A stretch of 64,000 bases of DNA, taken from contig NZ_FOYL01000001.1 in assembly GCF_900115955.1 (NCBI RefSeq), forward strand, positions 868,001 through 932,000, written 5' to 3'. This document shows positions 1 to 42,011 of this stretch, one piece after another. This DNA is from Lentzea waywayandensis (GTDB taxonomy: Bacteria; Actinomycetota; Actinomycetes; Mycobacteriales; Pseudonocardiaceae). Positions within the stretch are counted from its first letter, which is position 1. Every line of letters begins with the position of its first letter. A model generated the notes under the pieces. It saw only the letters and a list, made by a program, of their open reading frames with translations, had not been told where the DNA came from and searched no databases. The translations under genes were made by a program, and so were the position numbers.

Positions 1-2429
1 GCCTCGACGAGCGCGGACAGCACGCCGTCCGGTCCGATCTCCAGCAGCGTCCGGTCGCCCAGGCCGGTCACGGCGTCGTGGAAGCGAACGGTGTCGCGGA
101 CGTGGCGGACCCAGTACTCGGGGCCGGCGACATCGCCGGTCATCGGGATCGCCGGGCTGCGGAACGTGATGCCGCCGATGGCTTCGCGGAAGGCGTTGAG
201 CATCGGGTCCATCAGCGGCGAGTGGAACGCGTGGCTGACGGCGAGTTGCTTGCTCTTGCGGCCTTCGAACCGTGCGACGATCGCGCGAACTTCGCTCTCG
301 ACGCCCGCGATGACCAGGGAATCCGGTCCGTTGATCGCCGCGATGGAGACGCCGGGGGTGAGGGTGATCTCGTCCTCGGTGGCCTGGAGCGCGATCATCA
401 CGCCGCCGGGCGGCAGCTCCTGCATGAGGCTCGCGCGTGCCTGGACGAGGGTGGCGGCGTCTTCGAGGCTGAACACGCCGGCGATGTGCGCGGCGGCGAT
501 CTCGCCGATCGAGTGGCCGGTGACGTGCGCGGCGGTGACGCCGAACGACTCCAGCAGCCGGTAGAGGGCGACCTCGAACGCGAACAGCGCGGGCTGCGTG
601 TTGCCTGTCTGGTTCAGCGCCTCCTCGTCGCCCCACATGACGTCGCGCAGCCCTGGGTCGAGGTGCCGCAGCACCTCGTCGAACGCCTCGCGGAAGACCG
701 CGAACTCGGTGTACAGCTCCTTGCCCATGCCGACGCGCTGCGCACCCTGGCCGGAGAACAGGAGTGCCAGTTCGGTCCGCCGCGCCAGGCCGTGCGCGAT
801 CTCGGTTCCGTCCAGCAGCACGGCCCGGTGCTCGAACAACGCGCGCGTGGTCGCCAACGAGAACCCGACGTCCACTGGGTCGGCGTCGAGCGCGCGCACC
901 CGTTCGATCTGCGCCGCGAGCGAGGCCTCCGACCTCGCCGACACGAGCCACGGCGGCGCGCTCTTCGGGATCGATTCGGATTGTTCGGCCCCCAGGGGGC
1001 TGCGAGCCCCCATCTCAATCATCTCAGGCAGGTCTGACAGTTCTGGAGCACTCGGAGCTTCCAAGATCACGTGGGCGTTGGTGCCGGATACGCCGAACGA
1101 CGAGACGGCGGCGCGCGGGGCGCGACCGGTGGAAGGCCAGGCCACGGCCGAGGTGGCGAGTTCGACGGAGCCGGCGGTCCAGTCGACGTGCGTGGACGGG
1201 CGGGACACGTGCAGGGTGGCGGGCACGACGCCGTGCTGCATCGCTTGGACCATTTTGATGATGCCCGCGACGCCGGCGGCGGCCTGGGTGTGGCCGATGT
1301 TCGACTTCACCGAACCCAGCAGCAAAGGCGAAGGCCGATCCGCGCCGTACACCGCCAGCAGGCTGCGGGCCTCGATCGGGTCGCCCAGCGCGGTGCCGGT
1401 GCCGTGGGCCTCCACGACGTCCACATCGGACGGACCAAGACCGGCGCGGTCCAGGGCGGCGCGGATGACCCGTTGCTGGGCGCGGCCGTTCGGGGCGGTG
1501 AAGCCGTTGGAGGCGCCGTCGGAGTTGACGGCCGAGCCACGCACCACGGCGAGAACCGGGTAACCCAAAGCCTCTGCATCCGACAGGCGGGCCAGTGCCA
1601 GCACGCCGACGCCCTCGGACCAGCCCGTGCCGTCCGCGTCGTCGGAGAAGGCCTTGCATCGGCCGTTGGACGCGAGTCCGCCCTGACGCGAGAACTCGAC
1701 CAACGAGCCTGGCGTGCACATGACGTTGACGCCACCCGCGAGAGCCAGTGAACACTCCCCCGCGCGTAGTGCGTGCACGGCCAGATGCAGTGCGACCAAA
1801 GAAGAGGAGCACGCCGTGTCGACGGTCAAAGTCGGGCCTTCGAGGCCCAGGGCGTAGGAGATGCGACCGGACTCGGCGGACGCCGCGATGCCGGTGCCGA
1901 CGTCGCCGGTGGCGTCGTCGAGGCCGCGGATCAGCAGGTGCTCGTAGTCCTGTCCGTTGGTGCCGACGAAAACACCGGTGCGTGAGCCGCGCAGAGAAGA
2001 AGGGTCGATGCCGGAGCGTTCCAGCGCTTCCCAGGACGTCTCCAGCAACAGGCGCTGCTGGGGGTCCATCGTCACGGCCTCGCGCGGCGAGATGCCGAAG
2101 AACGCCGGGTCGAAATCCGCGATGCCCTGCAGGAAACCGCCCTGCACGGACACGCTGTGGCCGCGTTCGTCGACACCGCCGCCCAGCAGCGCGTCGATGT
2201 CCCAGCCGCGGTCGGCCGGGAAACCGGTGATCGCGTCACGACCGGACGACACCAGCTCCCACAGGTCCTCCGGCGAGCTGATGCCGCCGGGGAAGCGGCA
2301 GGCCATCCCGATGATCGCGATCGGTTCGGTGGCGGCGGCGACGAGCTGCCGGTTCTGCTTGCGCAGCCGCTCCGCCTCCTTCATCGCGGCGCGGAGGGCC
2401 TCGACCACCTTCTCGCTGGAGGTACTCAT
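1..2429 (-). CDS. Modular type I PKS, 5' part only (docking-KS-AT...), polyene AmphJ/NysJ-like position
   Basis: The gene reads leftward and leaves the window at base 1, so only the first 809 codons are seen. The ATG is preceded by GGAG at good spacing. Residues 1-30 form a charged coiled-coil docking helix ([18 protein letters not shown]...). It should receive the chain from the C-terminal docking tail of the upstream hexamodular synthase. A ketosynthase follows with Cys207 in DTACSSS and the HGTGT and NIGH histidine motifs. After a linker carrying a dispersed repeat comes an acyltransferase with GHSIGE (Ser640) and HAFHSPLM, the signature of malonyl-CoA selection. Reductive domains and the ACP lie outside the window. 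By order after the six-module protein it sits where AmphJ or NysJ sits in polyene clusters; that equivalence is inference. Confidence 0.93.
967..1045 (-). repeat. Dispersed in-frame palindromic element, copy A
   Basis: The copy lies in the KS-AT linker of the downstream PKS and encodes [20 protein letters not shown]. It contains the hairpin GGGGGCT-GCG-AGCCCCC (995-1011) and, on the plus strand, ends with the GTCTGACAGTTC motif. Confidence 0.8.
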
Positions 2430-2518
2430 TCATCAGCTCCGTCAGTCCAGCCGGACACGGTCATCCCGCCAGCAATTGGAGCAGCAGAAGCGGTAGCGAA
2501 TTCCTCAGAAAACCCAGC

Positions 2519-2548
2519 GGCCGGCCACCTCCGGGGAGGTGGCCGGCC
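2519..2548 (-). terminator. Strong hairpin between the two PKS genes
   Basis: A perfect 14-bp stem (2519-2532 paired with 2535-2548) with a 2-base loop lies just after the stop of the six-module PKS. On the minus strand it is followed by GCTGGGTTTTC, a short T run. It looks like an intrinsic or partial terminator that would modulate read-through into the next PKS gene, or a 3'-end stabiliser. Confidence 0.6.
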
Positions 2549-2564
2549 ACGAGGAAACCGACGA

Positions 2565-29183
<26,619 letters not shown>

Positions 29184-29234
29184 CCCTCAACCCATCTCGA
29201 GACGCGACCTGTCAGGAATCCTCGCGTCCGAGCG

Positions 29235-29250
29235 CCTGGCATACCCCTAG
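29235..29250 (-). promoter_or_regulatory. Weak PimM-like (LuxR-type) operator upstream of the hexamodular PKS
   Basis: On the minus strand this reads CTAGGGGTATGCCAGG. It shares the CTAGGG half of the PAS-LuxR (PimM) consensus CTVGGGAWWTCCCBAG but has about four mismatches. It lies roughly 50 bp upstream of the PKS ATG. Confidence 0.35.
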
Positions 29251-29257
29251 AAACGGA

Positions 29258-29289
29258 CAGGGGCACCCCTACGGCGAGGGGTGCCCCTG
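29258..29289 (-). terminator. Hairpin between the P450 and PKS genes
   Basis: A 13-bp perfect stem (29258-29270 with 29277-29289) and 6-base loop lie 14 bp past the P450 stop and about 75 bp before the PKS start. No long T run follows on the minus strand (TCCGTTTCTAGG). It may act as an attenuator, weak terminator or RNA-processing barrier between two genes expected to be co-expressed. Confidence 0.5.
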
Positions 29290-29302
29290 AACGGAGAAGC
29301 GC

Positions 29303-30517: not shown

Positions 30518-30531
30518 AGCGGGAACCTTCA

Positions 30532-31851
30532 CTAAGAGGAGCGGAATCGGTTGATCGCGTCGATGTTTCTGCCGCGCAGCTCATGGTCCAGCACGCCGAG
30601 ACCCTCGGACGGCGCCAGGCACAGCACTCCGACCTTGCCCTGGTGGGCGTTGCGGTGAACGTCGTGCGCGGCCTGCCCGGTCTCGTCGAGCGAGTACACC
30701 CTGGACAGTGTCGGGTGGATCTTTCCCTTGGCCACCAACCGGTTCGCCTCCCAGGCCTCGCGGTAGTTCGCGAAGTGCGACGAGACGATGTGCTTGAGGT
30801 TCATCCACAGGTACCGGTTGTCGTACTGGTGCAGGTATCCCGACGTGGAGGCGCAGGTGACGATCTTGCCGCCCTTGCGCGCCACGAACACCGAGGCACC
30901 GAACGTCTCCCTGCCGGGGTGCTCGAACACGATGTCCGGGTCCTCGCCGCCGGTGAGCTCACGGATGCGCGCGCCGAACCGCTTCCACTCGCGCGGGTCC
31001 TGCTCGTGCTCGTTCTTCCAGAACCTGTACCCCTCGGCCGAACGATCGATGATCAGCTCCGCCCCCATGGATCGGCAGATCTCCGCCTTGTCCGGCGAGG
31101 ACACGACACAGACAGGGGTCGCGCCGCCGTTCAACGCGAACTGCGTGGCGTAGGAACCGAGTCCGCCGGAAGCACCCCAGATCAGGACCGTGTCGCCCTG
31201 CTTCATGTTGCCGCCGTTGGTCGACACCAGCTGGCGGTACGCGGTGGAGTTCACCAGACCGGGCGAGGCGGCCTCCTCCCACGTGAGGTGCTCGGGCTTC
31301 GGCATCAGCTGGTTCGCCTTGACCAGCGCCAGATCGGCCAGGCCGCCGAAGTTCGTCTCGAAGCCCCAGATCCGCTGCTGCGGGTCCAGCATCGTGTCGT
31401 TGTGCCCGTCCGGGCGTTCCAACGGCACGTCCAGGCAGTGCGCAACCACCCGGTCGCCCGGCTTCCACACCGTCACGCCAGGGCCTACGCGCAGCACGAC
31501 GCCGGCGAGGTCGGACCCCACGACGTGGTACGGCAGCTGATGTCTGCCCCCCAACCGGCGCAGGAACCCGAACGTCGACACCGGCTCGAAGATCGACGTC
31601 CACACGGTGTTGTAGTTGATCGCGGACGCCATCACGGCAACCAACGCCTCACCGGGCGCCAGCTCCGGTGTCGCGACCTCGCGGACCTTCAGCGACCGCC
31701 GCGGGTCCTTCTCCCAGGTCGGGAGGCCCGCGAACATGTCGGCGTCGCTCTCCTCGACCACCACGGCGCGATAGCTCTCCGGCACCGGTAGCGCCTCGAA
31801 GTCCCGCGCCACCGCGTCGTCAGATTCGATGGCGCTCAGGATTTCGCTCAT
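30532..31851 (-). CDS. ccr: Crotonyl-CoA carboxylase/reductase
   Basis: This medium-chain dehydrogenase/reductase converts crotonyl-CoA (or longer 2-enoyl-CoA) plus CO2 and NADPH to ethylmalonyl-CoA (or alkylmalonyl-CoA), an unusual PKS extender. The 439-residue protein has the cofactor motif WGASGGLGSY and segments typical of the carboxylating subfamily: INYN (Asn81) and GFETNFGG (Phe164-Glu165), which correspond to the CO2-site region as I recall the family. ATG 31851 has GAGG just upstream; a TTG 9 bases earlier is less likely. It is first in the series ccr-P450-PKS and shares a promoter region with the ABC exporter pair. It could supply an ethylmalonyl unit to a module outside the window, or C4 starter metabolism. 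Confidence 0.93.
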   Translation of the reverse strand: MSEILSAIESDDAVARDFEALPVPESYRAVVVEESDADMFAGLPTWEKDPRRSLKVREVATPELAPGEALVAVMASAINYNTVWTSIFEPVSTFGFLRRLGGRHQLPYHVVGSDLAGVVLRVGPGVTVWKPGDRVVAHCLDVPLERPDGHNDTMLDPQQRIWGFETNFGGLADLALVKANQLMPKPEHLTWEEAASPGLVNSTAYRQLVSTNGGNMKQGDTVLIWGASGGLGSYATQFALNGGATPVCVVSSPDKAEICRSMGAELIIDRSAEGYRFWKNEHEQDPREWKRFGARIRELTGGEDPDIVFEHPGRETFGASVFVARKGGKIVTCASTSGYLHQYDNRYLWMNLKHIVSSHFANYREAWEANRLVAKGKIHPTLSRVYSLDETGQAAHDVHRNAHQGKVGVLCLAPSEGLGVLDHELRGRNIDAINRFRSS

Positions 31852-31876
31852 GTACCTCAAGGTAGGAGGACCGGCC

Positions 31877-31892
31877 CTAGGGAATGCCCGAG
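31877..31892. promoter_or_regulatory. PimM-like PAS-LuxR operator box 1 in the ccr/ABC divergent promoter
   Basis: CTAGGGAATGCCCGAG matches the published PimM consensus CTVGGGAWWTCCCBAG at 15 of 16 positions (G for T at position 10). It sits between divergently transcribed ccr (start 31851) and the ABC gene (start 31941). PimM-type activators control pimaricin and other polyene clusters. Confidence 0.65.
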
Positions 31893-31911
31893 AGAAACGA
31901 GCCCTGCAAGT

Positions 31912-31927
31912 CTAGGGATTGCCGGTA
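31912..31927. promoter_or_regulatory. PimM-like half box 2 in the ccr/ABC divergent promoter
   Basis: CTAGGGATTGCCGGTA keeps the left half of the PimM consensus and part of the right. It is centred 35 bp from box 1, on the ABC-transporter side. CTAG is normally rare in such GC-rich DNA, which makes the pair notable. Confidence 0.4.
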
Positions 31928-31940
31928 CGGCCACTGAGGT

Positions 31941-33680
31941 GTGCTGGGGCGTGTGCTCGCCCGATTCCTGAACCACCACCTCCGGCCGTACCGGGGAACA
32001 CTCGTGCTCCTGGTGGTGCTCCAGCTGGTCCAGACCGCCGCGACCCTGCTGCTGCCCACGCTCAACGCGCAGATCATCGACAACGGCGTGCTCCTCGGCG
32101 ACGCCGGCTACATCTGGGGCACCGGCCTCACGATGCTCGGGGTCGCGGCCGTGCAGATCCTCACCGCGAGCGGCGCGATGCTGCTCAGCTCCCGCATGTC
32201 CGCGGGCCTCGGCCGGGACCTGCGCGAGAAGGTGTTCCGCAGGGTCATGACCCTGTCGGCACGGGAGGTCGACCAGATCGGCGCGCCGTCGCTGATCACC
32301 AGGACCGTCAACGACGTCGGGCAGGTCCAGAGCATCGTGCTCACGACCGCCGACGTCGCCGTGTCGGCGATCATCATGTGCGTCGGCGGCGTCGCCCTGG
32401 CTCTCGTGCAGGACGTTCCGGTGTCGATGATCCTGATCGCGCTGGTCGTCATCGTGATCGCCGGCCTGACGTTCATGCTCCAGCGCCTCTCGCCGTTCTA
32501 CAAGGCCATGCAGAGCTATCTCGACCGCATCAACCACCTGCTGCGCGAGCAGATCATCGGTGTTCGGGTGATCCGCGCGTTCGTCCGTGACCAGCACGAA
32601 CGTGGCCGGTTCGACGCCACCAACGGTGATCTGCACGCAACATCGCGGCGGGTCGGGCGGATCATGGCGACGATGCCTGTGATGGTCATGACCGTGATGA
32701 ACGTGCTGACGATCGGCATCATCTGGTTCTCCGGTCATCGCATCGAGGACGGCACCATGCAGCTCGGTGCTCTGCTCGCGTTGCTGTCGTACGTCACGTT
32801 GATCATCGTCGCGATCATCATGGCGATGCTCGTGTTCACCGAGGCTCCCCGCGCCGCCGTGTCCGCGAACCGCGTGAACGAGGTCCTGCAAGCCGAGTCG
32901 AGCATCGCCAAGCCGCGAACACCCGTCACGAAGACGGCCCTGCGTGGGCATCTGGAACTGCGCGGCGCCACGTTCGGCTACCCCGGTGCGGAGAAACCGG
33001 TGCTGCGGGACGTCGGCCTCACCGCCCGGCCGGGCGAGACGGTCGCGATCCTCGGCAGCACCGGCAGCGGCAAGTCGACGCTGTTGTCGCTGGCACTGCG
33101 GCTCTACGACGTCACCGGCGGTCAGGTGCTGATCAACGACACCGACATCCGCGACCTCGACCCGCAGGCACTGCACCGGATCGTCGGCTACGTGCCGCAG
33201 AAGGCACACCTGTTCAGCGGCACGATCGCGTCGAACCTCCGCTACGGCAAGGAGGACGCGACCGACGACGAGCTGTGGCACGCGCTGGAGATCGCGCAGG
33301 CCGCCGAGTTCGTCCGGCCGCTCGGGCTCGACGCGCCGATCTCGCAGGGCGGGTCGACCGTCTCAGGTGGACAGAGGCAACGCCTCGCCATCGCACGGGC
33401 ACTGGTCCGGCGGCCCGAGATCTACCTGCTGGACGACTGCTTCTCCGCGCTCGACCTCGGCACCGAAGCCAGGCTGCGCGCGGCGCTGGCCCGCGAGCTC
33501 CACGACGCGACGATCCTGCTGGTCACCCAGCGGATCAGCACCGTCGAGGCGGCGTCGCGCGTCGTCGTGCTGGAGGACGGCCAGGTCGTCGGCTCCGGTA
33601 CGCACGCCGAGCTGATCGGCACCAACCAGACCTACCGGGAGATCGCCCTCTCCCAGCCAGTCGGAGGGACCGTCCGATGA
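31941..33680 (+). CDS. ABC exporter half-transporter, degenerate catalytic site (AmphH/G-type)
   Basis: The 579-residue protein has an N-terminal six-helix membrane domain (about 20-290) followed by an ATPase domain. Walker A is GSTGSGKST near 372 and the signature is VSGGQRQR. The Walker B end reads LLDDCFSALD, so the usual catalytic Glu after Walker B is Asp (499). That is the hallmark of the degenerate partner in heterodimeric exporters. The next gene starts inside its stop codon (ATGA), so the two products probably form a heterodimer exporting the macrolide or conferring self-protection, like AmphG/H, NysG/H or PimA/B. The GTG start is preceded by TGAGGT. Downstream GTG at 31953 is an alternative. 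Confidence 0.93.
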   Translation: MLGRVLARFLNHHLRPYRGTLVLLVVLQLVQTAATLLLPTLNAQIIDNGVLLGDAGYIWGTGLTMLGVAAVQILTASGAMLLSSRMSAGLGRDLREKVFRRVMTLSAREVDQIGAPSLITRTVNDVGQVQSIVLTTADVAVSAIIMCVGGVALALVQDVPVSMILIALVVIVIAGLTFMLQRLSPFYKAMQSYLDRINHLLREQIIGVRVIRAFVRDQHERGRFDATNGDLHATSRRVGRIMATMPVMVMTVMNVLTIGIIWFSGHRIEDGTMQLGALLALLSYVTLIIVAIIMAMLVFTEAPRAAVSANRVNEVLQAESSIAKPRTPVTKTALRGHLELRGATFGYPGAEKPVLRDVGLTARPGETVAILGSTGSGKSTLLSLALRLYDVTGGQVLINDTDIRDLDPQALHRIVGYVPQKAHLFSGTIASNLRYGKEDATDDELWHALEIAQAAEFVRPLGLDAPISQGGSTVSGGQRQRLAIARALVRRPEIYLLDDCFSALDLGTEARLRAALARELHDATILLVTQRISTVEAASRVVVLEDGQVVGSGTHAELIGTNQTYREIALSQPVGGTVR

Positions 33681-35563
33681 CCCTGCTCGCCGATCCCGAA
33701 GTCCGGTCCGAGGTCTCGGAACCGAAGAAACCCGCCACCACCAGGCGACTGTTCGGGCTGCTGGTGCCGTACCAGGGCAAGCTCGTGATCATCGGACTGC
33801 TCGCGGTCGTGACGATCGGGCTCAACCTGCTCGGCCCGATCCTGCTCGGCCGCGCCACCGACCTCATCTTCACCGGCCTCGTCAGCCGAGGCCTTCCCGC
33901 GGGCGCCACCGAGGAACAGGTCCTCGCCCAGCTGCGGGCGGAGGGCAAGGGCACCCTCGCGAACGTCATCAGCACCGTCGACTTCGTGCCCGGCCAGGGC
34001 GTCGACTTCGACACGCTCGGCAAGTTGCTGCTGCTGATCCTCGGCCTGTACGTCATCGGATCGGTGTCCATGCTGATGCAGGGCCGGGTCGTCAACAACA
34101 TCGTGCAGCACGCCGTCTTCAAGCTGCGCGAGGAGATCGACGCGAAGCTCACCCGGCTTCCGCTGGCCTACTTCGACCGCAACCCGCGCGGCGAGATCCT
34201 CTCCCGAGTCTCCAACGACGTCGACAACCTGCAACGGACCGTGCAGCTGTCGATCGGTCAGATGCTCACGTCGGTGATCTCGGTGTTCGGCGTGCTGGCG
34301 ATCATGCTGGTGATCTCCGTACATCTCGCCCTGCTGGTGCTGATCTGCGTGCCGATCGCACTCGTGCTGGCCGCATGGATCTCCAAGCGCGCCATGCCGA
34401 AGTTCGCCGAGCAGTGGCAGTCGACGGGCGCGTTGAACGCGCACGTCGAGGAGATGTACAGCGGCCACGCGCTGATCACCGCCTTTGGCCGGCAGGAACA
34501 GGCCTCGCGGGAGTTCGCCGGGCGCAACGAGACGATGTACCGATCATCGTTCAGCGCACAGGCCATCTCCGGCCTCATCGGACCGGCGACCCGGTTCATC
34601 ACCGACCTCAACTACGTGATGGTCGCCGTCGTCGGCGCGCTGCGGGTCGCGTCGGGCTCGGTGTCGATCGGTGATGTGCAGGCGTTCATCCAGTACTCCG
34701 GCATGTTCTCGCGGCCGATCATCGACGTCGCGAACTTCTCCGGCCAGCTCCAGTCCGGCATCGCCTCGGCCGAGCGCGTGTTCGAGCTGCTGGACGAGCC
34801 GGAGCAGTCGCCGGCGCCCGCCAGGCCCGCGACCGTCTCGCCGGTGCGCGGACACGTCGAGTTCTCGCACGTCTCCTTCCGCTACACGCCCGGCAAGCCG
34901 CTCATCGACGACCTGTCGCTGTCCGCGGCACCCGGCCGGCTCGTGGCCATCGTCGGGCCGACCGGTGCCGGCAAGACGACGCTGGGCAACCTGCTGCTGC
35001 GGTTCTACGAGCTCGACGCCGGCCGGATCCTGCTGGACGGCACGGACATCACGTCGCTGACCCGCGAGGAGCTCCGCTCGGCCATCGGGCTGGTCTCGCA
35101 GGACACGTGGCTGTTCGAGGGCACGATCGCCGAGAACATCGCCTACGGACGGCCCGGTGCCACACGGGACGAGGTCGTCGAGGCCGCGAAGGCCATGTGC
35201 GTGGACCGGTTCGTGCGGTCGCTGCCCGACGGGTACGACACGGTCCTCGACGAGGAGCACGGCGGGTTGTCCGCGGGTGAGCGGCAGCTGATCACGCTGG
35301 CCCGCGCGTTCCTCGCCCAGCCCGCGATCCTGCTGCTGGACGAGGCCACGTCGTCCATCGACACCCGCACGGAGGTCCTCATCCAGCAGGCGATGACGTC
35401 GCTGCGGGCGGGCCGGACGAGCTTCGTGATCGCGCACCGGCTGTCCACGATCCGGGGCGCCGACCTGATCGTCGTGATGGACCAGGGTGCCGTGGTGGAA
35501 CGCGGCACGCACGAGGAACTGATGGCCGCCCAGGGTTTCTACGCCAGGCTGTACTCGGCCTAG
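33677..35563 (+). CDS. ABC exporter half-transporter, catalytic partner (AmphG/H-type)
   Basis: The 628-residue protein has a cytosolic N-tail, six membrane helices with a long loop between helices 1 and 2 (about 75-115), and an ATPase domain with Walker A GPTGAGKTT (near 427), signature LSAGERQL (near 530) and LLDEATSSID (near 552) with the catalytic Glu present. It overlaps the upstream half-transporter by 4 bases (ATGA). It should complete a heterodimeric exporter with one consensus and one degenerate ATP site. The signature has LSAGE rather than LSGGQ, a common variant. Location beside the PKS supports a role in product efflux. Confidence 0.93.
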   Translation: MTLLADPEVRSEVSEPKKPATTRRLFGLLVPYQGKLVIIGLLAVVTIGLNLLGPILLGRATDLIFTGLVSRGLPAGATEEQVLAQLRAEGKGTLANVISTVDFVPGQGVDFDTLGKLLLLILGLYVIGSVSMLMQGRVVNNIVQHAVFKLREEIDAKLTRLPLAYFDRNPRGEILSRVSNDVDNLQRTVQLSIGQMLTSVISVFGVLAIMLVISVHLALLVLICVPIALVLAAWISKRAMPKFAEQWQSTGALNAHVEEMYSGHALITAFGRQEQASREFAGRNETMYRSSFSAQAISGLIGPATRFITDLNYVMVAVVGALRVASGSVSIGDVQAFIQYSGMFSRPIIDVANFSGQLQSGIASAERVFELLDEPEQSPAPARPATVSPVRGHVEFSHVSFRYTPGKPLIDDLSLSAAPGRLVAIVGPTGAGKTTLGNLLLRFYELDAGRILLDGTDITSLTREELRSAIGLVSQDTWLFEGTIAENIAYGRPGATRDEVVEAAKAMCVDRFVRSLPDGYDTVLDEEHGGLSAGERQLITLARAFLAQPAILLLDEATSSIDTRTEVLIQQAMTSLRAGRTSFVIAHRLSTIRGADLIVVMDQGAVVERGTHEELMAAQGFYARLYSA

Positions 35564-35567
35564 GACG

Positions 35568-35630
35568 AACGGGATCTCCAGCTCCGCTGGTTCGGCGCGC
35601 TCCGCTTCGGCCGGGGCGCGCCTTCCCGTT
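35568..35630 (+). terminator. Nested inverted repeats after the ABC exporter genes
   Basis: The outer arms AACGGGA and TCCCGTT (35568-35574, 35624-35630) enclose the inner arms GGCGCGC and GCGCGCC (35594-35600, 35616-35622). The structure starts 5 bases after the stop. There is no real T tract beyond TTT, so termination is only suggested. Confidence 0.4.
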
Positions 35631-35719
35631 TCCCCACCGGCAGCACGTCGGTGTCGGAGAACGAGGCGGGTCCCGCACCGGGCGGCTTCCGCACCGCGCA
35701 GCTTCGTCCAGGAGAGAGC

Positions 35720-35759
35720 AAAAAAGATCCACAGCCGCAGACTTCAGCGGCTGTGGATC
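35720..35759 (-). terminator. Rho-independent terminator of the GDP-mannose dehydratase gene
   Basis: A 13-bp perfect stem (35726-35738 with 35747-35759) has an 8-base loop. On the minus strand six T residues follow it (A run at 35720-35725). It lies 14 bases past the stop of the minus-strand gene. Confidence 0.85.
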
Positions 35760-35773
35760 CCGGGAGGGTGGAT

Positions 35774-36811
35774 CTACCAGCTGGCGGCGGCCAGCAGGTC
35801 GCCGTACTGGTGCTCGGTGGCGACGTGCTTGAGGTCGGCCTCCACCATCATCTTCATCAGCGCCGAGAAGTCGACCTCGGGCTTCCAGCCGAGCTCACCG
35901 CGCACGCGGCTGGTGTCGGCGCACAGGATCTCGACCTCGGCCGGGCGGACCAGCACCGGGTCGATGTAGACGTAGTCCTCCCAGTTGAGGCCCACGTGCT
36001 CGAACGCGAGGCGCACGGCGTCGCGCACCGAGTGCATCTCGCCGGTGCCGACGACGTAGTCCGTGGGCTCCTCCTGCTGGAGCATCAGGTGCATCGCGCG
36101 GACGTAGTCGCCGGCGAAACCCCAGTCGCGCAACGCGTCCAGGTTGCCCAGGGCCAGCTTGTCCTGCAGGCCCTGCTTGATCTTCGCGACACCGAGGGAG
36201 ATCTTGCGCGTCACGAACTCCGCGCCGCGGCGCGGCGACTCGTGGTTGAACAGGATCCCGCCGACCGCGTACATGCCGAACGACTCGCGGTAGTTGCGCG
36301 TGATGAAGTGCCCGTAGGCCTTCGCCACGCCGTAGGGGCTGCGGGGGTGGAAGATCGTGGTCTCGCGCTGCGGCGTCTCGGCGGCCTTGCCGTACATCTC
36401 CGACGACGACGCCTGGTAGAAGCGGATGTTCTTGGCCGAGGCGCCGTTGTGGCGGCTGCTGGACAGGCCCGAGACGATGCGGATCGCCTCCAGCACGCGC
36501 AGCACGCCCATGGCGTTGACCTCGGTGACGAGCTCGGCCTGTTGCCAGGACATCGGCACGAACGAGATGGCGCCGAGGTTGTAGACCTCGTCCGGCTGCA
36601 CCAGGTCCACAGCGGACACCAGCGAGGCCTGGTCCATCAGGTCACCGTCCACGAAGGACAGTTCCGACATGAGCCGCGACACCCGCATCTTGTGCGGGTT
36701 CGCCTGTCCCCTGACGAGTCCCCACACGTCGTAACCCTGCTTGAGCAGGTGTTCCGCGAGGTACGACCCGTCCTGGCCGGTGATCCCGGTGATCAGTGCC
36801 CGCTTGGTCAT
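35774..36811 (-). CDS. gmd: GDP-mannose 4,6-dehydratase
   Basis: This short-chain dehydrogenase-family enzyme makes GDP-4-keto-6-deoxy-mannose from GDP-mannose. The 345-residue protein has GITGQDGSYL at 9-18 (NADP binding), SSSEMYG with Glu138, and the Tyr160-x3-Lys164 catalytic pair in SPYGVAKAYGHF. In polyene clusters the equivalent enzyme (NysDIII, AmphDIII) starts GDP-mycosamine synthesis, which fits the PKS type. No aminotransferase or glycosyltransferase is visible here, so they should be elsewhere in the cluster. A general cell-surface deoxyhexose role is the alternative. ATG 36811 is chosen because AGAGGA lies 6 bases upstream; ATG 36826 is less likely. Confidence 0.92.
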   Translation of the reverse strand: MTKRALITGITGQDGSYLAEHLLKQGYDVWGLVRGQANPHKMRVSRLMSELSFVDGDLMDQASLVSAVDLVQPDEVYNLGAISFVPMSWQQAELVTEVNAMGVLRVLEAIRIVSGLSSSRHNGASAKNIRFYQASSSEMYGKAAETPQRETTIFHPRSPYGVAKAYGHFITRNYRESFGMYAVGGILFNHESPRRGAEFVTRKISLGVAKIKQGLQDKLALGNLDALRDWGFAGDYVRAMHLMLQQEEPTDYVVGTGEMHSVRDAVRLAFEHVGLNWEDYVYIDPVLVRPAEVEILCADTSRVRGELGWKPEVDFSALMKMMVEADLKHVATEHQYGDLLAAASW

Positions 36812-36857
36812 CCCGTTTCCTCTCATCGCCTTACCGCTCGGTCCGACACGGGACGGA

Positions 36858-36906
36858 CCTGAATCCCTTGCAAAATTAGGGGTTCAGGCACTAGGGGATT
36901 CGCCGG
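36858..36906. promoter_or_regulatory. Inverted repeat and CTAGGGG motif between the thioesterase and gmd
   Basis: Arms at 36858-36868 and 36878-36888 form an 11-position imperfect stem around the thioesterase stop codon. CTAGGGGATTCGCC follows at 36891, resembling the left half of the PimM box. It could be a weak terminator for the thioesterase or an operator for gmd. Confidence 0.35.
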
Positions 36907-37621
36907 AAACGACGTCCGCGACCGCGCTTCTGTTGTCGGACAGAAAGAAATGGCCGCCGGAGAACACCCTGAGCGTGAAATCGCCGGTGGTGCGCTCTCG
37001 CCACTGCCCCACCTCGTCCACCGACGCCTTGGGGTCGGCGTCTCCGGTCAGCGCGGTCAGCGGGCACCGCAGCGCCGGACCCGGCCGGTAGCGATAGGTC
37101 TCGGCGGCCCGGTAGTCCGCGCGGATCGCCGGCAGCACCATCCGCACCAGTTCCTCGTCGTCGAACACCCGTGCGTTCGTGCCCGCGAGCCTGCGGACCT
37201 CGGCGATCAGGCCGGCGTCGTCACGCTGGTGCACGCGGTCGTCGCGGACGAGCTGCGGTGCGCGGCGGCCGGAGACGAACAGATGGTCCGGTTCGTGCCG
37301 CAGTGCCACCTCGAACGCGATCATCGCGCCCATGCTGTGCCCGAACAGGTGCAGCGGCCGGTCGGGGGTCAGCAGGTCCGCGATCTGGTCGGCCAGCGCG
37401 CGGATGTCGTCGATCAACGGCTCTGACCTGCGGTCCTGCCGTCCCGGGTACTGGACCGCGACCAGTTCGGCCCGTCCTTCGAAGTGCCGGGCGAACGGCT
37501 GGTACCAGCTCGCCGCGCCGCCCGCGTGCGGGAAGCAGACCAGGCGAGGTGCCCCCGCGGGAGCCTCGGAGAGTCGCCGGAACCAGAGATCGGTGTCGAG
37601 TGTGGAGGCCACGCCTGGCAT
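36884..37621 (-). CDS. Type II thioesterase (editing, alpha/beta hydrolase)
   Basis: This stand-alone thioesterase removes aberrant acyl groups from stalled PKS carrier proteins. The 245-residue protein is the usual length. It has the early motif CFPHAGGAASWY (about 29-40), the nucleophile Ser96 in GHSMGA, GDADP near 193 and the catalytic His224 in GGHFF. It matches NysE/AmphE-type enzymes in placement with a PKS cluster. It lies directly behind gmd on the same strand and may be co-transcribed with it. ATG 37621 is chosen because the conserved domain begins there and a divergent gene starts 53 bp away. Longer in-frame starts would run into that gene. Confidence 0.92.
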   Translation of the reverse strand: MPGVASTLDTDLWFRRLSEAPAGAPRLVCFPHAGGAASWYQPFARHFEGRAELVAVQYPGRQDRRSEPLIDDIRALADQIADLLTPDRPLHLFGHSMGAMIAFEVALRHEPDHLFVSGRRAPQLVRDDRVHQRDDAGLIAEVRRLAGTNARVFDDEELVRMVLPAIRADYRAAETYRYRPGPALRCPLTALTGDADPKASVDEVGQWRERTTGDFTLRVFSGGHFFLSDNRSAVADVVSGESPSA

Positions 37622-37673
37622 GCAAGCACCGTTTGCACTGAGGAAACGCCTCGGAACGGTTAGGTTGGACGGC

Positions 37674-38618
37674 ATGGGCAAGTCCCCGGCTGTGGAGCTC
37701 GAGGTGGAGGACCGCGTCGTGCGGATCTCCAACCCCGACCGCGTCTACTTTCCCGCGCGCGGCGAGACGAAACTGGATCTCGCGAACTACTACCTGTCCG
37801 TCGGTGACGGAATCGTCCGCGCGCTGCGGGAACGGCCGTGCATGCTGCACCGCTTCCCCGAGGGCGTCACGGGCGAGAAAGTGCACCAGAAAAGGCTTCC
37901 GAACGGCGCGCCACCGTGGGTGCGGACCGTGCGGGTGCACTTTCCGCGCTACAACCGCCACGCCGACGAACTGTGCGTCACGCACCTCGCGGACGTGATC
38001 TGGGCGGTGCAGATGTCCACTGTGGAGTTCCACCCGTGGAACTCGCGCGCCGCCGACACCGAGAAGCCCGACGAGTGGCGCATCGACCTCGACCCCGGCC
38101 CCACGTGCACGTTCGACCGCGTGCGACGGGTGGCGCTGGTGGTGCAGGAGGTCCTGGCCGAGCTGGGCGCGACGGGGTTCCCGAAGACGTCCGGGTCGAA
38201 AGGCCTGCACATCTACGTGCGGATCAAGCCCGACTTCGGCTTCCAGGACGTGCGGAAGGCGGCGCTGGCGTTCGCGCACGAGGTCGAACGGCGGGCGCCC
38301 GACGACGTCGAGACCACGTGGTGGCGCAAGGACCGCGACCCGTCGCTGGTGTTCGTGGACTACAACCAGAACACGCGCGACCGCACGATCGCCAGCGCCT
38401 ACTCGGTGCGCGGCTATCCCGAGGCGACGGTGTCCACGCCGATCCGCTGGGACGAGATCCCGGACGTCGACCCGCACGACTTCACCATCGCCACCGTGCC
38501 GAAGCGCTATGCCGAACTGGGCGACCTGCACGCCGGGATCGACGACGCGGTGTGGTCGATCGAACCGCTGCTGGAGTGGGCCGCCAGAGACGAACTCGAG
38601 GTTCCCGATGAGCAGTGA
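37674..38618 (+). CDS. LigD-type polymerase/primase domain protein (archaeo-eukaryotic primase family)
   Basis: This 314-residue stand-alone relative of the LigD polymerase domain belongs to the family that adds or fills nucleotides, preferably ribonucleotides, during non-homologous end joining. The catalytic acidic pair is seen as IDLDPG (Asp138, Asp140), with the nucleotide-binding stretch SGSKGLHIYV near 173-182 and SAYSVRGYP later. No ligase or nuclease domain is fused and no ku gene is nearby. The next gene is a paralogue overlapping it by 11 bases. The ATG has only a weak purine motif (TTGGACGGC) upstream. Confidence 0.9.
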   Translation: MGKSPAVELEVEDRVVRISNPDRVYFPARGETKLDLANYYLSVGDGIVRALRERPCMLHRFPEGVTGEKVHQKRLPNGAPPWVRTVRVHFPRYNRHADELCVTHLADVIWAVQMSTVEFHPWNSRAADTEKPDEWRIDLDPGPTCTFDRVRRVALVVQEVLAELGATGFPKTSGSKGLHIYVRIKPDFGFQDVRKAALAFAHEVERRAPDDVETTWWRKDRDPSLVFVDYNQNTRDRTIASAYSVRGYPEATVSTPIRWDEIPDVDPHDFTIATVPKRYAELGDLHAGIDDAVWSIEPLLEWAARDELEVPDEQ

Positions 38619-39537
38619 GCTGAAGTTCTCGTCGCTCGACCAACCCCTGTTCGGCGGGCTGCTCAAGGGCGACCTGGTGGAGTACCTGCGGTTCGTCGCC
38701 GACAGGTTCGTGCCGGTGCTGGCCGGGCGGCAGCTGTCGGTGTGGCGGATCCTGCGCGGCCAGGACCCGTTCATGCAGAAGAACGTCCCCAAGTACACGC
38801 CGTCGTACGTGAAGACCGTCGAGGTCTGGGCCGAGGCGTCGCACCGCAAGATCAAGTACGCGATCTGCGACGACGTGCAGACGCTGATGTGGTTCGCGAA
38901 CCAGCGCGCGGTCGAGTACCACGTGCCGCTGTACCTCGGTGATCACTTCGGCGAGGACCACCACCAGACCCACATGGTGCTCGACATCGACCCGCCGGAG
39001 GGTGCCGGATTCGACGTCGTGGTGGGCTCGGCGTTGCTGATCCGCGAGGCACTGGTGGACGCCGGCCTGGAAAGCGTCGTGAAGACGAGCGGCGCCAAGG
39101 GTGTGCACATCTTCGTGCCGCTGGAGGAGCACTCCCCCGACGACGTGGCCGCGGCGACGCGCGCGGTGGCGGTGCGGGCGGAGAAGCTCGACCCCGCGCT
39201 CGCGACCACCGCGTACATCCGGGCCGAGCGGGGCGGGAAGGTGTTCCTGGACTCGACACGCGCCTGGGGTGCGACCGTCGTCGCCGCCTACAGCCCCCGG
39301 TTGCGTGAGGGCCTGCCGATCTCGTTCCCCGTGCCGTGGGAGTCGTTGGGTGATGTCACGCCCGCCGACTTCACGATCAAGACCCGGTTCGACGGCGACC
39401 CGTGGGCGTCACTGATGCCGAAGCCGCAACGCCTGCCCGACGACCTGATCGCCGAAGGGCACACCATCCCGGTCGCCCGCGTGGTCGCGATGCACGAGGG
39501 CAAGCGGCGGAAGGCTCAGCGGGAGCGCGAGAAGTAG
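38608..39537 (+). CDS. Second LigD-type polymerase/primase domain protein
   Basis: This 309-residue paralogue of the preceding protein has the acidic pair in LDIDPPE (Asp126, Asp128) and SGAKGVHIFV at 161-170. It also has a long N-terminal segment (GDLVEYLRFVADRF) like LigD polymerase domains. It starts inside the end of the first gene, so the pair is co-translated. The two may act together or be specialised for different ends. The 3' end overlaps the convergent caspase gene by 22 bases. The substrate and partner ligase cannot be deduced here. Confidence 0.9.
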   Translation: MSSELKFSSLDQPLFGGLLKGDLVEYLRFVADRFVPVLAGRQLSVWRILRGQDPFMQKNVPKYTPSYVKTVEVWAEASHRKIKYAICDDVQTLMWFANQRAVEYHVPLYLGDHFGEDHHQTHMVLDIDPPEGAGFDVVVGSALLIREALVDAGLESVVKTSGAKGVHIFVPLEEHSPDDVAAATRAVAVRAEKLDPALATTAYIRAERGGKVFLDSTRAWGATVVAAYSPRLREGLPISFPVPWESLGDVTPADFTIKTRFDGDPWASLMPKPQRLPDDLIAEGHTIPVARVVAMHEGKRRKAQREREK

Positions 39538-42011
39538 GCCACGATCGCGGCCGCAAGTGGCAGCGTCACGTGGGCGACGCTGGTGAACGTCGGCTCGCTC
39601 GCGGACACGTAGTCGCCGGCGCGCACCAGGATTCCGGCCGCGAGGGCGGTGCAGGCGGCGAACCTGGCGGTGCCGGTGGTCAGGACGACGATCAGGGGGA
39701 TCACGACCAGGCCCGCCAAGCTCACGTGGGTGACGTACAGCGGGACCTCGGCCGTCAGGGTGATGACCACCTCCAGCAGCAACAACGCCGGTGCGATCGC
39801 GCCGAACCACCGCCGGTCGCGCCAGATGCGATAGGCCGCGAGGCAGGTGAGGGCGGCCGCCGTGATGAACAGCGTGATTTCCTCGCCGTCGCCGTTGAAC
39901 GGTGTCAGGTCCTGCGCCGCGTACGCGACCACGTACACACCCAGCGCGCCCAGCCCGCCTCCGGCCAGCGCCAGCCACCACGGGGTCGCCGCGGCGGCGA
40001 CGGCCAGGACGGTGGCCGCCAGCGCGTACGGGATCCACGGGTAGGTCTCACCACCGCTGAGCAGGCCTGTCGTGGCGGCCAGAAGGCCCAGCGCGGCGCC
40101 GGGAACCCACGGGTGGTCGCGGCAGGTGAGCACGAAGAGTGCCGCGACCAGCGCCCATGGCCAGACCGCGGCGAACACGAACGTGTGGGGGCTGGAGTCG
40201 CCGAGGACTCTGAGGATGCCGCCGGGGATCGTCATCAGGCCCAGGACGAGAAGGATGAGGGCCAGGCCTGCGGCCAGACGCGGCAGCGCGGTCGCCGCGG
40301 TCGTCAGGGAGGGGACGGGCGTGGGCTCTTCTGCCGTGCGCGGTGCATGGCCGTCGTCCGGCGGCCGAGCGGCAGGCGTGTCCTGTGCTTGCCTGGCTGC
40401 GGTGCCCGGCGGGCTCGCGGCAGGGGTGCGCATTGCCTGCCGGGCCGCGGTGCCTGGCGGCCGCGCAGCGGGAGTGTCCGGCGCTTGCCCGCCCGGCGGC
40501 CGCTTGGCGGGCGTGCCCGACGTGGCCGTTCCGGAGCCGGACGCGCTGAGCAGAGTGCGCCTGGGCGTCGGCGGAATCGATTCCGCCTCGTCGGCCCCCA
40601 GGGGGCTCGAAGCCCCCACTCCCATCGTCTCAGGCGGCACCGACAGTTTTCGCGCCTCGGCGTGGTCCCTGGCCGGGAGCTTCGAGGTCGGCGCGGGCAC
40701 GGCCTTCTCCCCCAGCGCGTCGCGGGCCGCGGCCGCCACCATGCGGCTGTCGTCGTCGGACAGCTTCCGCAACGCCAGCCGCGCCGCCAGCACCCGCCCC
40801 TCGTGCGCGATCGACAGCATCCGGCGCAGTTCCGGGATCGCGCCCGCCCGCACGCCCGGCAGCGAGTGGTCGATCGCGTCCTGAAGTTCCGCGGGAAGGG
40901 CCGCGGGCACCGAGACCGGGCGGGCGCGGCGGGCTATGCGCAGGTCGCCGCGCACGTCGAGCATCCACTTGCCCGGGGTCTGGTGCGGGGTCACGCGGCG
41001 GACGCGGTCGTAGACGTACTCGTAGAGCTCGTCCAGGCCCACGTGGCCGTCCTGGTCGCGGTCGGCGTCGCCCGATTCGAGGCCCTCCACCAGCGCCGAG
41101 GTGAAGACCGACGGTTCGCCCTCGGACGAGTCGGCCACGGCCGCGCCCTCGAAGGCGTACTCCATGGCCGACGAGGCGGTGATGACGGCCCGGCCGCTGC
41201 CGCCGAACTGTTCCTCCAGGCCGATGAGGCCGCCCGCGCGGGCGACCATGCCGCGGCCGAACGCGCCGGAGTAGCAGCAGTCCAGCAGCAGGACGATGCG
41301 GCGGGAGCGGGAGCGGTTCATGCGGCGGGCCACGAAGTCCGCGGAGACGGCGGTGCCGGCCAGGCGGGAGAGTTTGGTGCTGGAGGTGGCGAAGTGGAGC
41401 TCGCCGGCCTCGTCCTTCACGCCGTGGCCGGAGAAGTGCAGGACCAGGAGGTCGTCGGAGGCGCGGTCGGCGAAGAAGTCCTCGACGGCCTCGTTCACCT
41501 CGGCGGCCGGGGAGTTGATCATCGTTCGGACGTGGAAGCCACCGATGCGCGGGTCCGCGAGCACCTCGCCCAGGCGGGCGGCGTCGTGGGCGGGGGCGCG
41601 CAACGACGACAGTCCGGGATCAGCGAACTCGTGGCTCGCGATGATCAGCGCGTAGCGGTGGAGGTGGCGGCCCAGCCACGCGGACCGCTCCGCCAGCTCC
41701 GCCTCGGTCGGAGCGCCGGTGAGTTCCAGGCTCTCGCCGTCCGCCTCGACCGTCACGGAACGACCGCGGCGCTGGCCCAGCCACGTCGACACGGCGTTGA
41801 TCAGTGCGGCGAGCACGGTGGACTGGGAGATCGTGGTCAGCAGGGTGCCCAGTTCGGCCGGGTCGACGGTCTTGGCGCCCGCGGGGGCCTCGCCGGAAGT
41901 GGAAGAGACGGCGACGAGTTCCCGCAGTTCCGTCCGCAGGAACGCGGTGAGCTGCTCGATGCGCTCGTCGTCTGCCCCGTCTTCGCGCACGCGCAGTGTG
42001 ACGTCGGTCAT
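39516..42011 (-). CDS. EACC1-caspase-EF-hand-transmembrane protein (probable conflict or suicide effector)
   Basis: The 831-residue protein has several parts in order. Residues 1-100 look like the effector-associated constant component EACC1 (TLRVREDG..., STWLGQRRGRSVTVE). The caspase-like domain (about 118-310) has the His in SGHG (196) and the Cys in DCCYSG (246). An EF-hand loop with DxDxDGxVxxxE spacing follows at 317-328. A HEAT-like helical segment comes next (about 355-430). A disordered Pro-rich linker contains the dispersed element and 16-residue repeats. About nine or ten membrane helices form the C-terminal third. The architecture suggests calcium- or partner-triggered proteolysis at the membrane, possibly killing an infected cell. 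That function is inferred from family context. ATG has a perfect AGGAGG 5 bases upstream. Confidence 0.88.
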   Translation of the reverse strand: MTDVTLRVREDGADDERIEQLTAFLRTELRELVAVSSTSGEAPAGAKTVDPAELGTLLTTISQSTVLAALINAVSTWLGQRRGRSVTVEADGESLELTGAPTEAELAERSAWLGRHLHRYALIIASHEFADPGLSSLRAPAHDAARLGEVLADPRIGGFHVRTMINSPAAEVNEAVEDFFADRASDDLLVLHFSGHGVKDEAGELHFATSSTKLSRLAGTAVSADFVARRMNRSRSRRIVLLLDCCYSGAFGRGMVARAGGLIGLEEQFGGSGRAVITASSAMEYAFEGAAVADSSEGEPSVFTSALVEGLESGDADRDQDGHVGLDELYEYVYDRVRRVTPHQTPGKWMLDVRGDLRIARRARPVSVPAALPAELQDAIDHSLPGVRAGAIPELRRMLSIAHEGRVLAARLALRKLSDDDSRMVAAAARDALGEKAVPAPTSKLPARDHAEARKLSVPPETMGVGASSPLGADEAESIPPTPRRTLLSASGSGTATSGTPAKRPPGGQAPDTPAARPPGTAARQAMRTPAASPPGTAARQAQDTPAARPPDDGHAPRTAEEPTPVPSLTTAATALPRLAAGLALILLVLGLMTIPGGILRVLGDSSPHTFVFAAVWPWALVAALFVLTCRDHPWVPGAALGLLAATTGLLSGGETYPWIPYALAATVLAVAAAATPWWLALAGGGLGALGVYVVAYAAQDLTPFNGDGEEITLFITAAALTCLAAYRIWRDRRWFGAIAPALLLLEVVITLTAEVPLYVTHVSLAGLVVIPLIVVLTTGTARFAACTALAAGILVRAGDYVSASEPTFTSVAHVTLPLAAAIVAYFSRSR
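40359..40514 (-). repeat. 48-bp tandem repeats encoding a Pro/Ala linker in the caspase protein
   Basis: Two full 48-bp units (40428-40475 and 40380-40427) encode TPAARPPGTAARQAMR and TPAASPPGTAARQAQD. Degenerate part-units lie on each side. They make a flexible linker before the membrane region. Confidence 0.75.
40570..40650 (-). repeat. Dispersed in-frame palindromic element, copy E, inside the caspase gene
   Basis: The copy encodes KLSVPPETMGVGASSPLGAD plus ESIPP in the disordered linker of the caspase-family protein. It has the perfect 18-bp palindrome GGCGGAATCGATTCCGCC (40570-40587) and the hairpin GGGGGCT-CGA-AGCCCCC (40601-40617). Orientation and reading frame are the same as in the PKS copies, although the host gene is unrelated. 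Confidence 0.8.

What the first reader, a model, noticed from the sequence alone, without database searches (positions are those of the whole stretch)
967..40650. A dispersed palindromic element inserted in frame in five places, including two unrelated protein families
Copies at about 967-1045, 9556-9626, 18334-18416, 27750-27829 and 40570-40650 share the DNA pattern (hairpin, then ATCATCTCAGG, then GTCTGACA) and encode the same peptide ([19 protein letters not shown]). Four lie in PKS KS-AT linkers, where common descent could explain them. The fifth lies in the linker of a caspase-family gene with no PKS homology. Hairpin arms differ by paired changes (GGGGGCT/AGCCCCC, GGGGAC/GTCCCC, G6/C6), so the fold seems conserved. 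All copies share one orientation and frame and sit in unstructured linkers. This resembles the coding-region palindromic elements of Rickettsia (RPE), but I know of no named actinobacterial family. It could be mobile in trans, or a selected protein or RNA tag.
Basis: partly seen in the sequence, partly recalled or inferred. Interest (0 to 1): 0.82.

Follow-up and report, generated by a model that had tools for sequence, protein, structure and literature searches.

The report
Mobile palindrome inserted inside Lentzea proteins
An 81-letter DNA element has been copied into many unrelated genes of the soil bacterium genus Lentzea, often adding about 27 amino acids to the protein without breaking its reading frame, much like the "selfish" palindromes known from Rickettsia but in a quite different group of bacteria.

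Summary
A model built from the four PKS copies alone finds the caspase copy at 44.8 bits; 40 shuffled windows reach at most 6.6. The host is a Lentzea. Its genome has 20 matches, the 24 genus genomes 201, and 366 other genomes of the family none (two candidates scored per genome). The 92 distinct copies fetched fall into 15 insertion sites. At ten of these the element lies in frame in a gene (PKS linkers, methylmalonyl-CoA mutase, NRPS, caspase, MFS transporter and others), six read in one orientation and four in the other. Filled and empty orthologues coexist: the mutase site is filled in 18 of 24 Lentzea and 0 of 6 outgroups. Variation is even over codon positions, against a selected peptide. 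Best reading: a genus-specific MITE-like palindrome that works like Rickettsia RPEs. Lead: the left end resembles a DNA-damage promoter, tTGTCRgtg-8-TannnT, lacking the first T of the box; 22 of 24 copies of a related second family have it. No mobilising enzyme was found.

The parts
966..1046 (-). Element copy in PKS KS-AT linker; encodes [27 protein letters not shown]
   Evidence: profile hit E 2.3e-23; translation
9550..9626 (-). Truncated element copy in PKS KS-AT linker (right half lost)
   Evidence: profile hit E 2.1e-16; blastn covers only query 5-61 of 82, window 9564-9623
13887..13900 (-). Likely remnant of element right end (CGGAGTCGATTCCG, peptide ESIP) in another KS-AT linker
   Evidence: inference from 12 of 13 bases matching GGAATCGATTCCG at an equivalent place
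18336..18416 (-). Element copy in PKS KS-AT linker
   Evidence: profile hit E 1e-24
27749..27830 (-). Element copy in PKS KS-AT linker
   Evidence: profile hit E 3.2e-25
40572..40649 (-). Element copy in the linker of a caspase-family (Peptidase_C14 + EACC1) protein
   Evidence: E 5e-13 from a PKS-only model; Pfam hits
39516..42011 (-). Host gene: caspase-family protein, 831 aa
   Evidence: orthologues with and without the element
2565..29183 (-). Host gene: modular PKS ORF (8872 aa) carrying three copies and one remnant
   Evidence: ORF; KS ends by motif; not itself scanned against Pfam
3..2429 (-). Host gene: PKS (runs off the window) carrying copy 1

Best explanation
It is a dispersed, non-autonomous, MITE-like palindromic element of about 81 bp (27 codons), found only in Lentzea in the collections searched. 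It has short imperfect inverted ends (CCGGAAY.. / ..ATTCCG), an invariant G4/C4 hairpin core and an open frame on each strand. Insertions were occasionally made into genes and between genes. Those that survive in coding DNA lie in frame, mostly in linkers, and are then inherited with the gene. Shown: dispersal, in-frame fusion in both orientations, filled and empty orthologues, descent of copies by site, no codon-position constraint on the peptide. Inferred: movement by an unidentified transposase acting in trans, and a selfish rather than useful nature.
For: 20 matches in the host genome; 201 in 24 of 24 genus genomes at E<=1e-4; 15 insertion-site clusters among 92 distinct fetched copies. 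Host genes by Pfam: PKS, MM_CoA_mutase, condensation domain, Peptidase_C14, MFS_4, methyltransferase, NIR_SIR_ferr, Lyase_1. The mutase linker is filled in 18 of 24 Lentzea loci and in 0 of 6 outgroup loci fetched. Of 21 propeller-site rows, 12 are filled, 3 altered, 3 empty, 1 a decayed footprint and 2 not comparable. The caspase linker is filled in 5 of 18. The nearest copy is at the same site for 58 of 71 copies; label shuffles give a mean of 15.6 counted over all 78 rows. Entropy by codon position in 32 non-redundant copies is 0.56/0.61/0.51. At the mutase site, 13 copies differ by codon position .147/.079/.177 in the element against .032/.032/.218 and .06/0/.261 in flanking host codons.
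Against: No target-site duplication or exact junction could be fixed: filled and empty alleles also differ by several linker codons. No linked transposase: Y1 transposases occur in 11 of 24 genomes and none of 22 Y1 loci carries the element nearby; other transposase families were not searched. Inverted ends pair imperfectly, 38-100% per pair. The element differs less than host third codon positions at all three comparisons, so it is not simply decaying at the neutral rate; some constraint at the DNA level, or homogenisation, is not excluded. In PKS genes, module duplication and gene conversion can explain many copies without transposition.
Confidence: 0.78

Rival explanations
1. A shared PKS linker spread by module duplication and gene conversion, with the caspase likeness fortuitous or due to a single recombination.
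For: 35 of 92 distinct fetched copies lie in the KS-AT cluster; 15 of 20 host-genome copies lie in KS-AT linkers; 4 of 6 KS ends found by motif in the window carry it at the same place.
Against: Nine further coding sites outside the KS-AT linker, in both orientations, plus sites at or between gene boundaries.
Confidence: 0.08
2. A selected peptide module (a tag or docking motif) carried by several proteins.
For: The sense peptide [21 protein letters not shown] recurs at six of the ten coding sites.
Against: Four other coding sites read the opposite strand; three of them encode GIDSDSQAPRGD..PIPS.SGRSD-like peptides, unrelated to the sense one. No wobble bias; at the mutase site first positions vary nearly as much as third, unlike flanking codons (a weaker contrast at the propeller site). 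Orthologues without it are common.
Confidence: 0.04
3. A mobile or once-mobile damage-responsive promoter: the element ends carry a PafBC/P1-type promoter, family 2 is the working form and family 1 the derivative that settled in coding DNA.
For: In the 78 aligned full-length copies the left end reads TGTC[AG]G (77 of 78 at the first T, 78 of 78 at the rest) and, at the promoter spacing, GAnnnT in 78 of 78, with the three n columns variable. The full pattern TGTC[AG]G-N10-TAnnnT is in 22 of 24 family 2 loci. TGTCRGAC-N8-TANNNT occurs 56 times in the host genome against 6 for the reversed pattern, once before a gene that I read as uvrC (L036). The consensus tTGTCRgtg-8 nt-TannnT is quoted in PMC5656591 (passage).
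Against: Family 1 has G, not T, at the first position of the -10-like box in 78 of 78 copies, and AC rather than tg after the -35-like core in most; no expression data; the match was noticed after the fact; the 78 copies are not independent.
Confidence: 0.2
4. A structured RNA or DNA element with a function of its own.
For: G4/C4 stem (100%) and left TCAG/CTGA stem (97-100%) are preserved in 32 copies. At orthologous sites the element differs less than host third positions (.177 against .218 and .261.157 against .35 and .289), and so do the PKS copies of the host genome (.172 against .423), which hints at constraint on the DNA.
Against: The stems are almost invariant, so give no covariation test, and the outer pairs often break (covariation term -0.25). 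Both transcript orientations occur. No Rfam family matches the element.
Confidence: 0.09

Closest known systems
Rickettsia palindromic elements (RPE; Ogata et al. 2000, 2002, seen only as cited)
   Same: Short palindromic repeat, in frame in many unrelated protein genes as well as between genes; several families in one genus (PMC2229807 and PMC10969869, passages read).
   Different: 81 bp against 105-146 bp; a 10 Mb, 70% GC actinobacterial genome; frequent in PKS/NRPS genes; an exact-pattern scan of 84,980 species' genomes found only Lentzea-type records.
Protein-coding palindromic repeats of Wolbachia (Ogata et al. 2005; seen only as a reference-list entry)
   Same: Palindromic repeats in protein-coding genes, by title
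   Different: Not compared; different phylum
Bacterial MITEs (ERIC, RUP, Correia, YPAL)
   Same: Non-autonomous, short, mostly with short inverted ends (PMC2229807, passages). PMC10969869 (passage) says in-frame fusions by intragenic MITEs are not unusual, with RPEs the extreme case.
   Different: No target-site duplication shown; no parent transposon found; ten of 15 sites in coding DNA
GTAG/CGTC REP elements with Y1 (RAYT) transposase
   Same: Small palindromes, sometimes in coding regions (PMC3733652, passages)
   Different: No GTAG or CGTC tag in the consensus; Y1 transposase not found in 13 of 24 genomes, including G011, the one with most copies. The RAYT link is recalled, from no call.

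Membership tests
RPE (Rickettsia palindromic element) | In-frame insertion into several unrelated protein genes | tested here: met
   10 of 15 insertion-site clusters
RPE (Rickettsia palindromic element) | Also present outside coding genes | tested here: met
   Gap between two glycosyltransferase genes, 5 copies
RPE (Rickettsia palindromic element) | Presence/absence among orthologues of close relatives | tested here: met
RPE (Rickettsia palindromic element) | Occurrence in Rickettsia / sequence kinship with its elements | tested here: not met
   Exact pattern in genome contigs gives 61 stretches, all titled Lentzea apart from two of 'Nocardia sp. NRRL S-836'. RPE sequences themselves were not compared.
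RPE (Rickettsia palindromic element) | Length 105-146 bp with 12-bp terminal inverted repeat | tested here: not met
   81 conserved positions; terminal pairs imperfect
RPE (Rickettsia palindromic element) | Insert compatible with the folded protein | not tested
   Structure job not accepted, machine busy
MITE | Terminal inverted repeats | tested here: inconclusive
   Seven end pairs form in 38-100% of 32 representatives
MITE | Target-site duplication | tested here: inconclusive
   None visible; filled/empty alleles too diverged at the junction
MITE | Parent transposon with the same ends | tested here: inconclusive
   No such longer element noticed among own-genome matches; only Y1 transposases were searched as a family
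REP/RAYT | GTAG or CGTC tag and a cognate Y1 (RAYT) gene | tested here: not met
   No tag in consensus; no element in any of 22 Y1 loci
PafBC/P1 (RecA-NDp) promoter | tTGTCRgtg-8 nt-TannnT | tested here: not met
   Family 1 has GAnnnT in 78 of 78 copies; family 2 has TGTC[AG]G-N10-TAnnnT in 22 of 24 loci; activity not testable here

The most novel reading that the evidence does not exclude
Lentzea carries a superfamily of small mobile elements built on a DNA-damage (PafBC-type) promoter. One branch (family 2, with a TAnnnT box) is spread through the genome, partly outside genes, and could place new damage-inducible promoters. The other (family 1, GAnnnT) has become compatible with translation in both orientations, with the same columns as third codon positions on either strand, and so seeds new linkers in megasynthases and core enzymes.
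Probability: 0.2. Interest if true: 0.85.

Novelty: new member of a known kind. Interest (0 to 1): 0.64.

Why it matters
In-frame 'selfish' palindromes are best known from Rickettsia. A 2024 MITE review (PMC10969869, passages) notes that MITEs do make in-frame fusions elsewhere, but calls protein evolution by an RPE-like mechanism in other prokaryotes only conceivable. Here is such a family in a GC-rich antibiotic-producing genus, with filled and empty alleles among 24 genomes and host enzymes that can be assayed. That makes an open question testable: do mobile DNA inserts create useful protein linkers, or are they only tolerated? It also matters for PKS work, because at least 15 KS-AT linkers of this genome contain the insert.

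Tried and rejected
Rejected or weakened: (1) Common PKS descent as the whole account (non-KS-AT sites). (2) Peptide tag (both orientations, no codon bias). (3) Covarying RNA fold as evidence: RNAalifold gave a covariation term of -0.25 kcal/mol on 15 copies and outer pairs break. (4) Y1/RAYT mobiliser: 11 of 24 genomes, none of 22 loci with the element. (5) Phage or plasmid carriage: no match in viral contigs (exact pattern), plasmids or phages (blastn). (6) Rfam membership: none at the element in the window or in the 13 loci searched.

Led nowhere: the methyltransferase site, because the one close orthologue (L380) gave no usable alignment past the insertion point. Exact junctions and target-site duplication could not be fixed. 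One search stopped on a pattern error after its first result, and the PKS rows were out of frame and the propeller site gave nothing; both were redone. Structure prediction was never accepted because the queue was full.

Changed on checking: I had written that the element decays near the neutral rate. Searches show it differing less than host third positions, so I lowered the best explanation from 0.82 to 0.78 and raised the RNA/DNA-function rival from 0.05 to 0.09 (and set the PKS-descent rival at 0.08, from 0.10, so that the odds stay coherent).

Samples and dropped rows: the 92 copies are a part of the 201 matches; searches took 59 usable stretches, chosen to favour isolated copies, so the PKS share is an underestimate, and copies with under 100 bases of upstream flank were left out. 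One search keeps 79 of 85 distinct hits as full length; L101, fetched without flanks, was dropped, leaving 78; thins these to 32 at 88% identity. One search uses 12 of 21 propeller rows. One search examined 18 close caspase orthologues and 600 bases after each query; one search covered all 30 caspase loci fetched and found the element in the same 5. One search scored at most 2 candidates per genome, at most 9.

Full report
Observation. The five copies exist where reported, all on the minus strand. A profile from the four PKS copies alone finds the caspase copy at E 5e-13 and 44.8 bits, while the best score in 40 shuffled windows is 6.6 bits. The copy near 9556 is truncated, and a likely remnant of the right end sits in a further KS-AT linker at 13887-13900. 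Of six KS ends found by motif in the window, four carry the element, one the remnant and one neither.

Host and distribution. A degenerate DNA pattern of the element, scanned over one genome for each of 84,980 species, gave 61 stretches, 59 titled Lentzea and two titled Nocardia sp. NRRL S-836. The host genome has 20 matches at E<1e-4: 15 in PKS KS-AT linkers and five elsewhere. All 24 genomes of the genus have it, 1 to 23 matches each, 201 in total. In the family search the 24 genus genomes matched and the other 366 did not, with at most two candidates scored per genome. Nothing was found in the viral, plasmid and phage collections.

Anatomy. The conserved stretch is 81 positions, roughly CCGGAAYTGTCAGACCNGCCTGAGAYGATTGGAGTGGGG...CCCCCAGGGGGCC...AGTCSGAATCGATTCCG. 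The core GGGG/CCCC stem never varies in 32 non-redundant copies. The next pairs hold in 69% and 47%, and seven end-to-end pairs hold in 38-100%.

Insertion sites. The 92 distinct copies fetched cluster by flanking DNA into 15 sites: PKS KS-AT linker (35 copies), methylmalonyl-CoA mutase (16), an NRPS condensation domain (10), a propeller-like protein without a Pfam hit (9), a gap between two glycosyltransferase genes (5), the caspase (4 in this count), a CobG-like protein with a nitrite/sulfite-reductase half domain (3), an MFS transporter (2), a lyase C-terminus (2) and six single sites. Pfam supports these names, except CobG-like, propeller-like and 'small subunit' of the mutase, which are my reading. 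At ten sites the element lies in frame in the gene: six sense (KS-AT, propeller, caspase, CobG-like, MFS, methyltransferase) and four antisense (mutase, NRPS, PKS ACP-TE, lyase). Sense sites use one frame (PELSDLPE..); three antisense sites share another (GIDSDSQ..), while the lyase copy changes frame within the element through a length difference. Five sites (the glycosyltransferase gap, L111, L112, L115, L124) are between genes or at ill-defined gene starts.

Filled and empty alleles. In the mutase linker, 6 of 6 outgroup loci and 6 of 24 Lentzea have a short linker (for example VREPAPELPTG-GLPRVRY). The other 18 Lentzea have the insert between the same flanks (for example VREPAV-[GIDSDSQAPWGETPPIPSFSGRSDNF]-GLPRVRY). 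With empty outgroups, insertion within Lentzea is the natural polarity; the empty Lentzea may be ancestral or later losses. In the propeller-like gene, of 21 rows, 12 are filled, three altered, three empty, one a decayed footprint and two not comparable. In the caspase linker 5 of 18 close orthologues have the element, seven have neither, and six have a second, related element in the opposite orientation, twice in one of them. Copies resemble most the copies at the same site (58 of 71; shuffled labels 15.6 over 78 rows), so sites were filled rarely and then inherited.

Selection. Variability is about equal at the three codon positions over 32 non-redundant copies (0.56, 0.61, 0.51 bits). At the mutase site, with 13 orthologous copies, flanking host codons vary mainly at third positions (.032/.032/.218 and .06/0/.261), whereas the element gives .147/.079/.177. 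The propeller site gives .126/.146/.157 in the element against .12/.113/.35 upstream and .161/.139/.289 downstream. For 12 PKS copies of the host genome the element gives .102/.173/.172 and the KS end .277/.202/.423. So the peptide shows no codon-position signature of constraint. But in all three comparisons the element differs less than host third positions, so it is not evolving simply at the neutral rate: constraint on the DNA itself, homogenisation between copies, or recent spread (in PKS) remain open.

Second family. The element in the other caspase orthologues shares the left end (TGTCAGACCnGC-TGAG) but has a different hairpin (GCAGGGGTTCCC..GGGGGACCCCTGC). It matches in 22 of 24 Lentzea genomes and weakly (E 8.9e-6) in 1 of 75 others (at most nine candidates scored per genome). 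Of 24 loci inspected some look coding and several do not; I did not count them rigorously. A superfamily in one genus recalls the ten RPE families of Rickettsia (PMC10969869, passage).

Promoter likeness. The left end of family 1 reads TGTC[AG]G in 77 of 78 copies and, at the spacing of the mycobacterial damage promoter tTGTCRgtg-8 nt-TannnT, GAnnnT in 78 of 78 (consensus from PMC5656591, passage). The R is variable and the three n are variable columns. TGTC[AG]G-N10-TAnnnT is found in 22 of 24 family 2 loci. In the host genome TGTCRGAC-N8-TANNNT occurs 56 times against 6 for the reversed pattern, once just before a gene that I read as uvrC (L036). This is a lead, not a result: family 1 lacks the first T of the box, and nothing was measured.

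Mechanism. Most likely the element moved occasionally by an enzyme acting in trans; insertions that kept a gene's frame survived, mostly in linkers; and within PKS clusters module duplication and gene conversion multiplied them. Dispersal, in-frame fusion, polymorphism and descent are shown. The enzyme, the exact ends, the PKS multiplication route and the absence of benefit are inferred. Y1 transposases are not the answer on this evidence: 11 of 24 genomes have one, and none of the 22 loci carries the element. Other transposase families were not searched.

Known relatives. The closest analogue is RPE. The element works like an RPE by three tested features, but is not a member by occurrence or size. 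I found no report of such a family in Actinobacteria or Lentzea in searches (listings and starts of abstracts only; the held library lacks most subscription journals). One listed paper (PMC6649704, start of abstract) reports coding palindromes in nematomorph mitochondria, and PMC10969869 notes in-frame fusions by other MITEs, so the kind itself is not new. Passages only were read of PMC10969869, PMC3733652, PMC5656591 and PMC2229807; Ogata 2000, 2002 and 2005 were seen only as cited there.

Noticed in passing
L306, L307, L310, L311, L312, L314 (caspase linker); L333-L356: A second, related palindromic family sharing the left end TGTCAGACCnGC-TGAG but with a different hairpin, in 22 of 24 Lentzea genomes and with one weak hit in another genus.
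   Followed up: partly
host genome, 56 places listed; L036: Strong excess of TGTCRGAC-N8-TANNNT, a PafBC-like damage promoter pattern, including one before a gene that reads like uvrC.
   Followed up: partly
L103 about 1955-2066: A 33-bp tandem duplication of the element's left end beside the copy in the PKS ACP-TE linker.
   Followed up: no
window 14172-14240, 23112-23180, 28089-28163 (+): Rfam ASpks (RF01782) matches antisense to PKS genes, above the gathering score; probably conserved PKS coding sequence.
   Followed up: no
L304, L307, L308, L313, L278, L015: Low-complexity short peptide repeats (GTA, PYAA, SGTAS types) expand near the element in several linkers.
   Followed up: no
L155 (G012): NRPS copy with one extra base in the element (GATACGGAG), which breaks the frame in that draft assembly; may be a sequencing error.
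   Followed up: no
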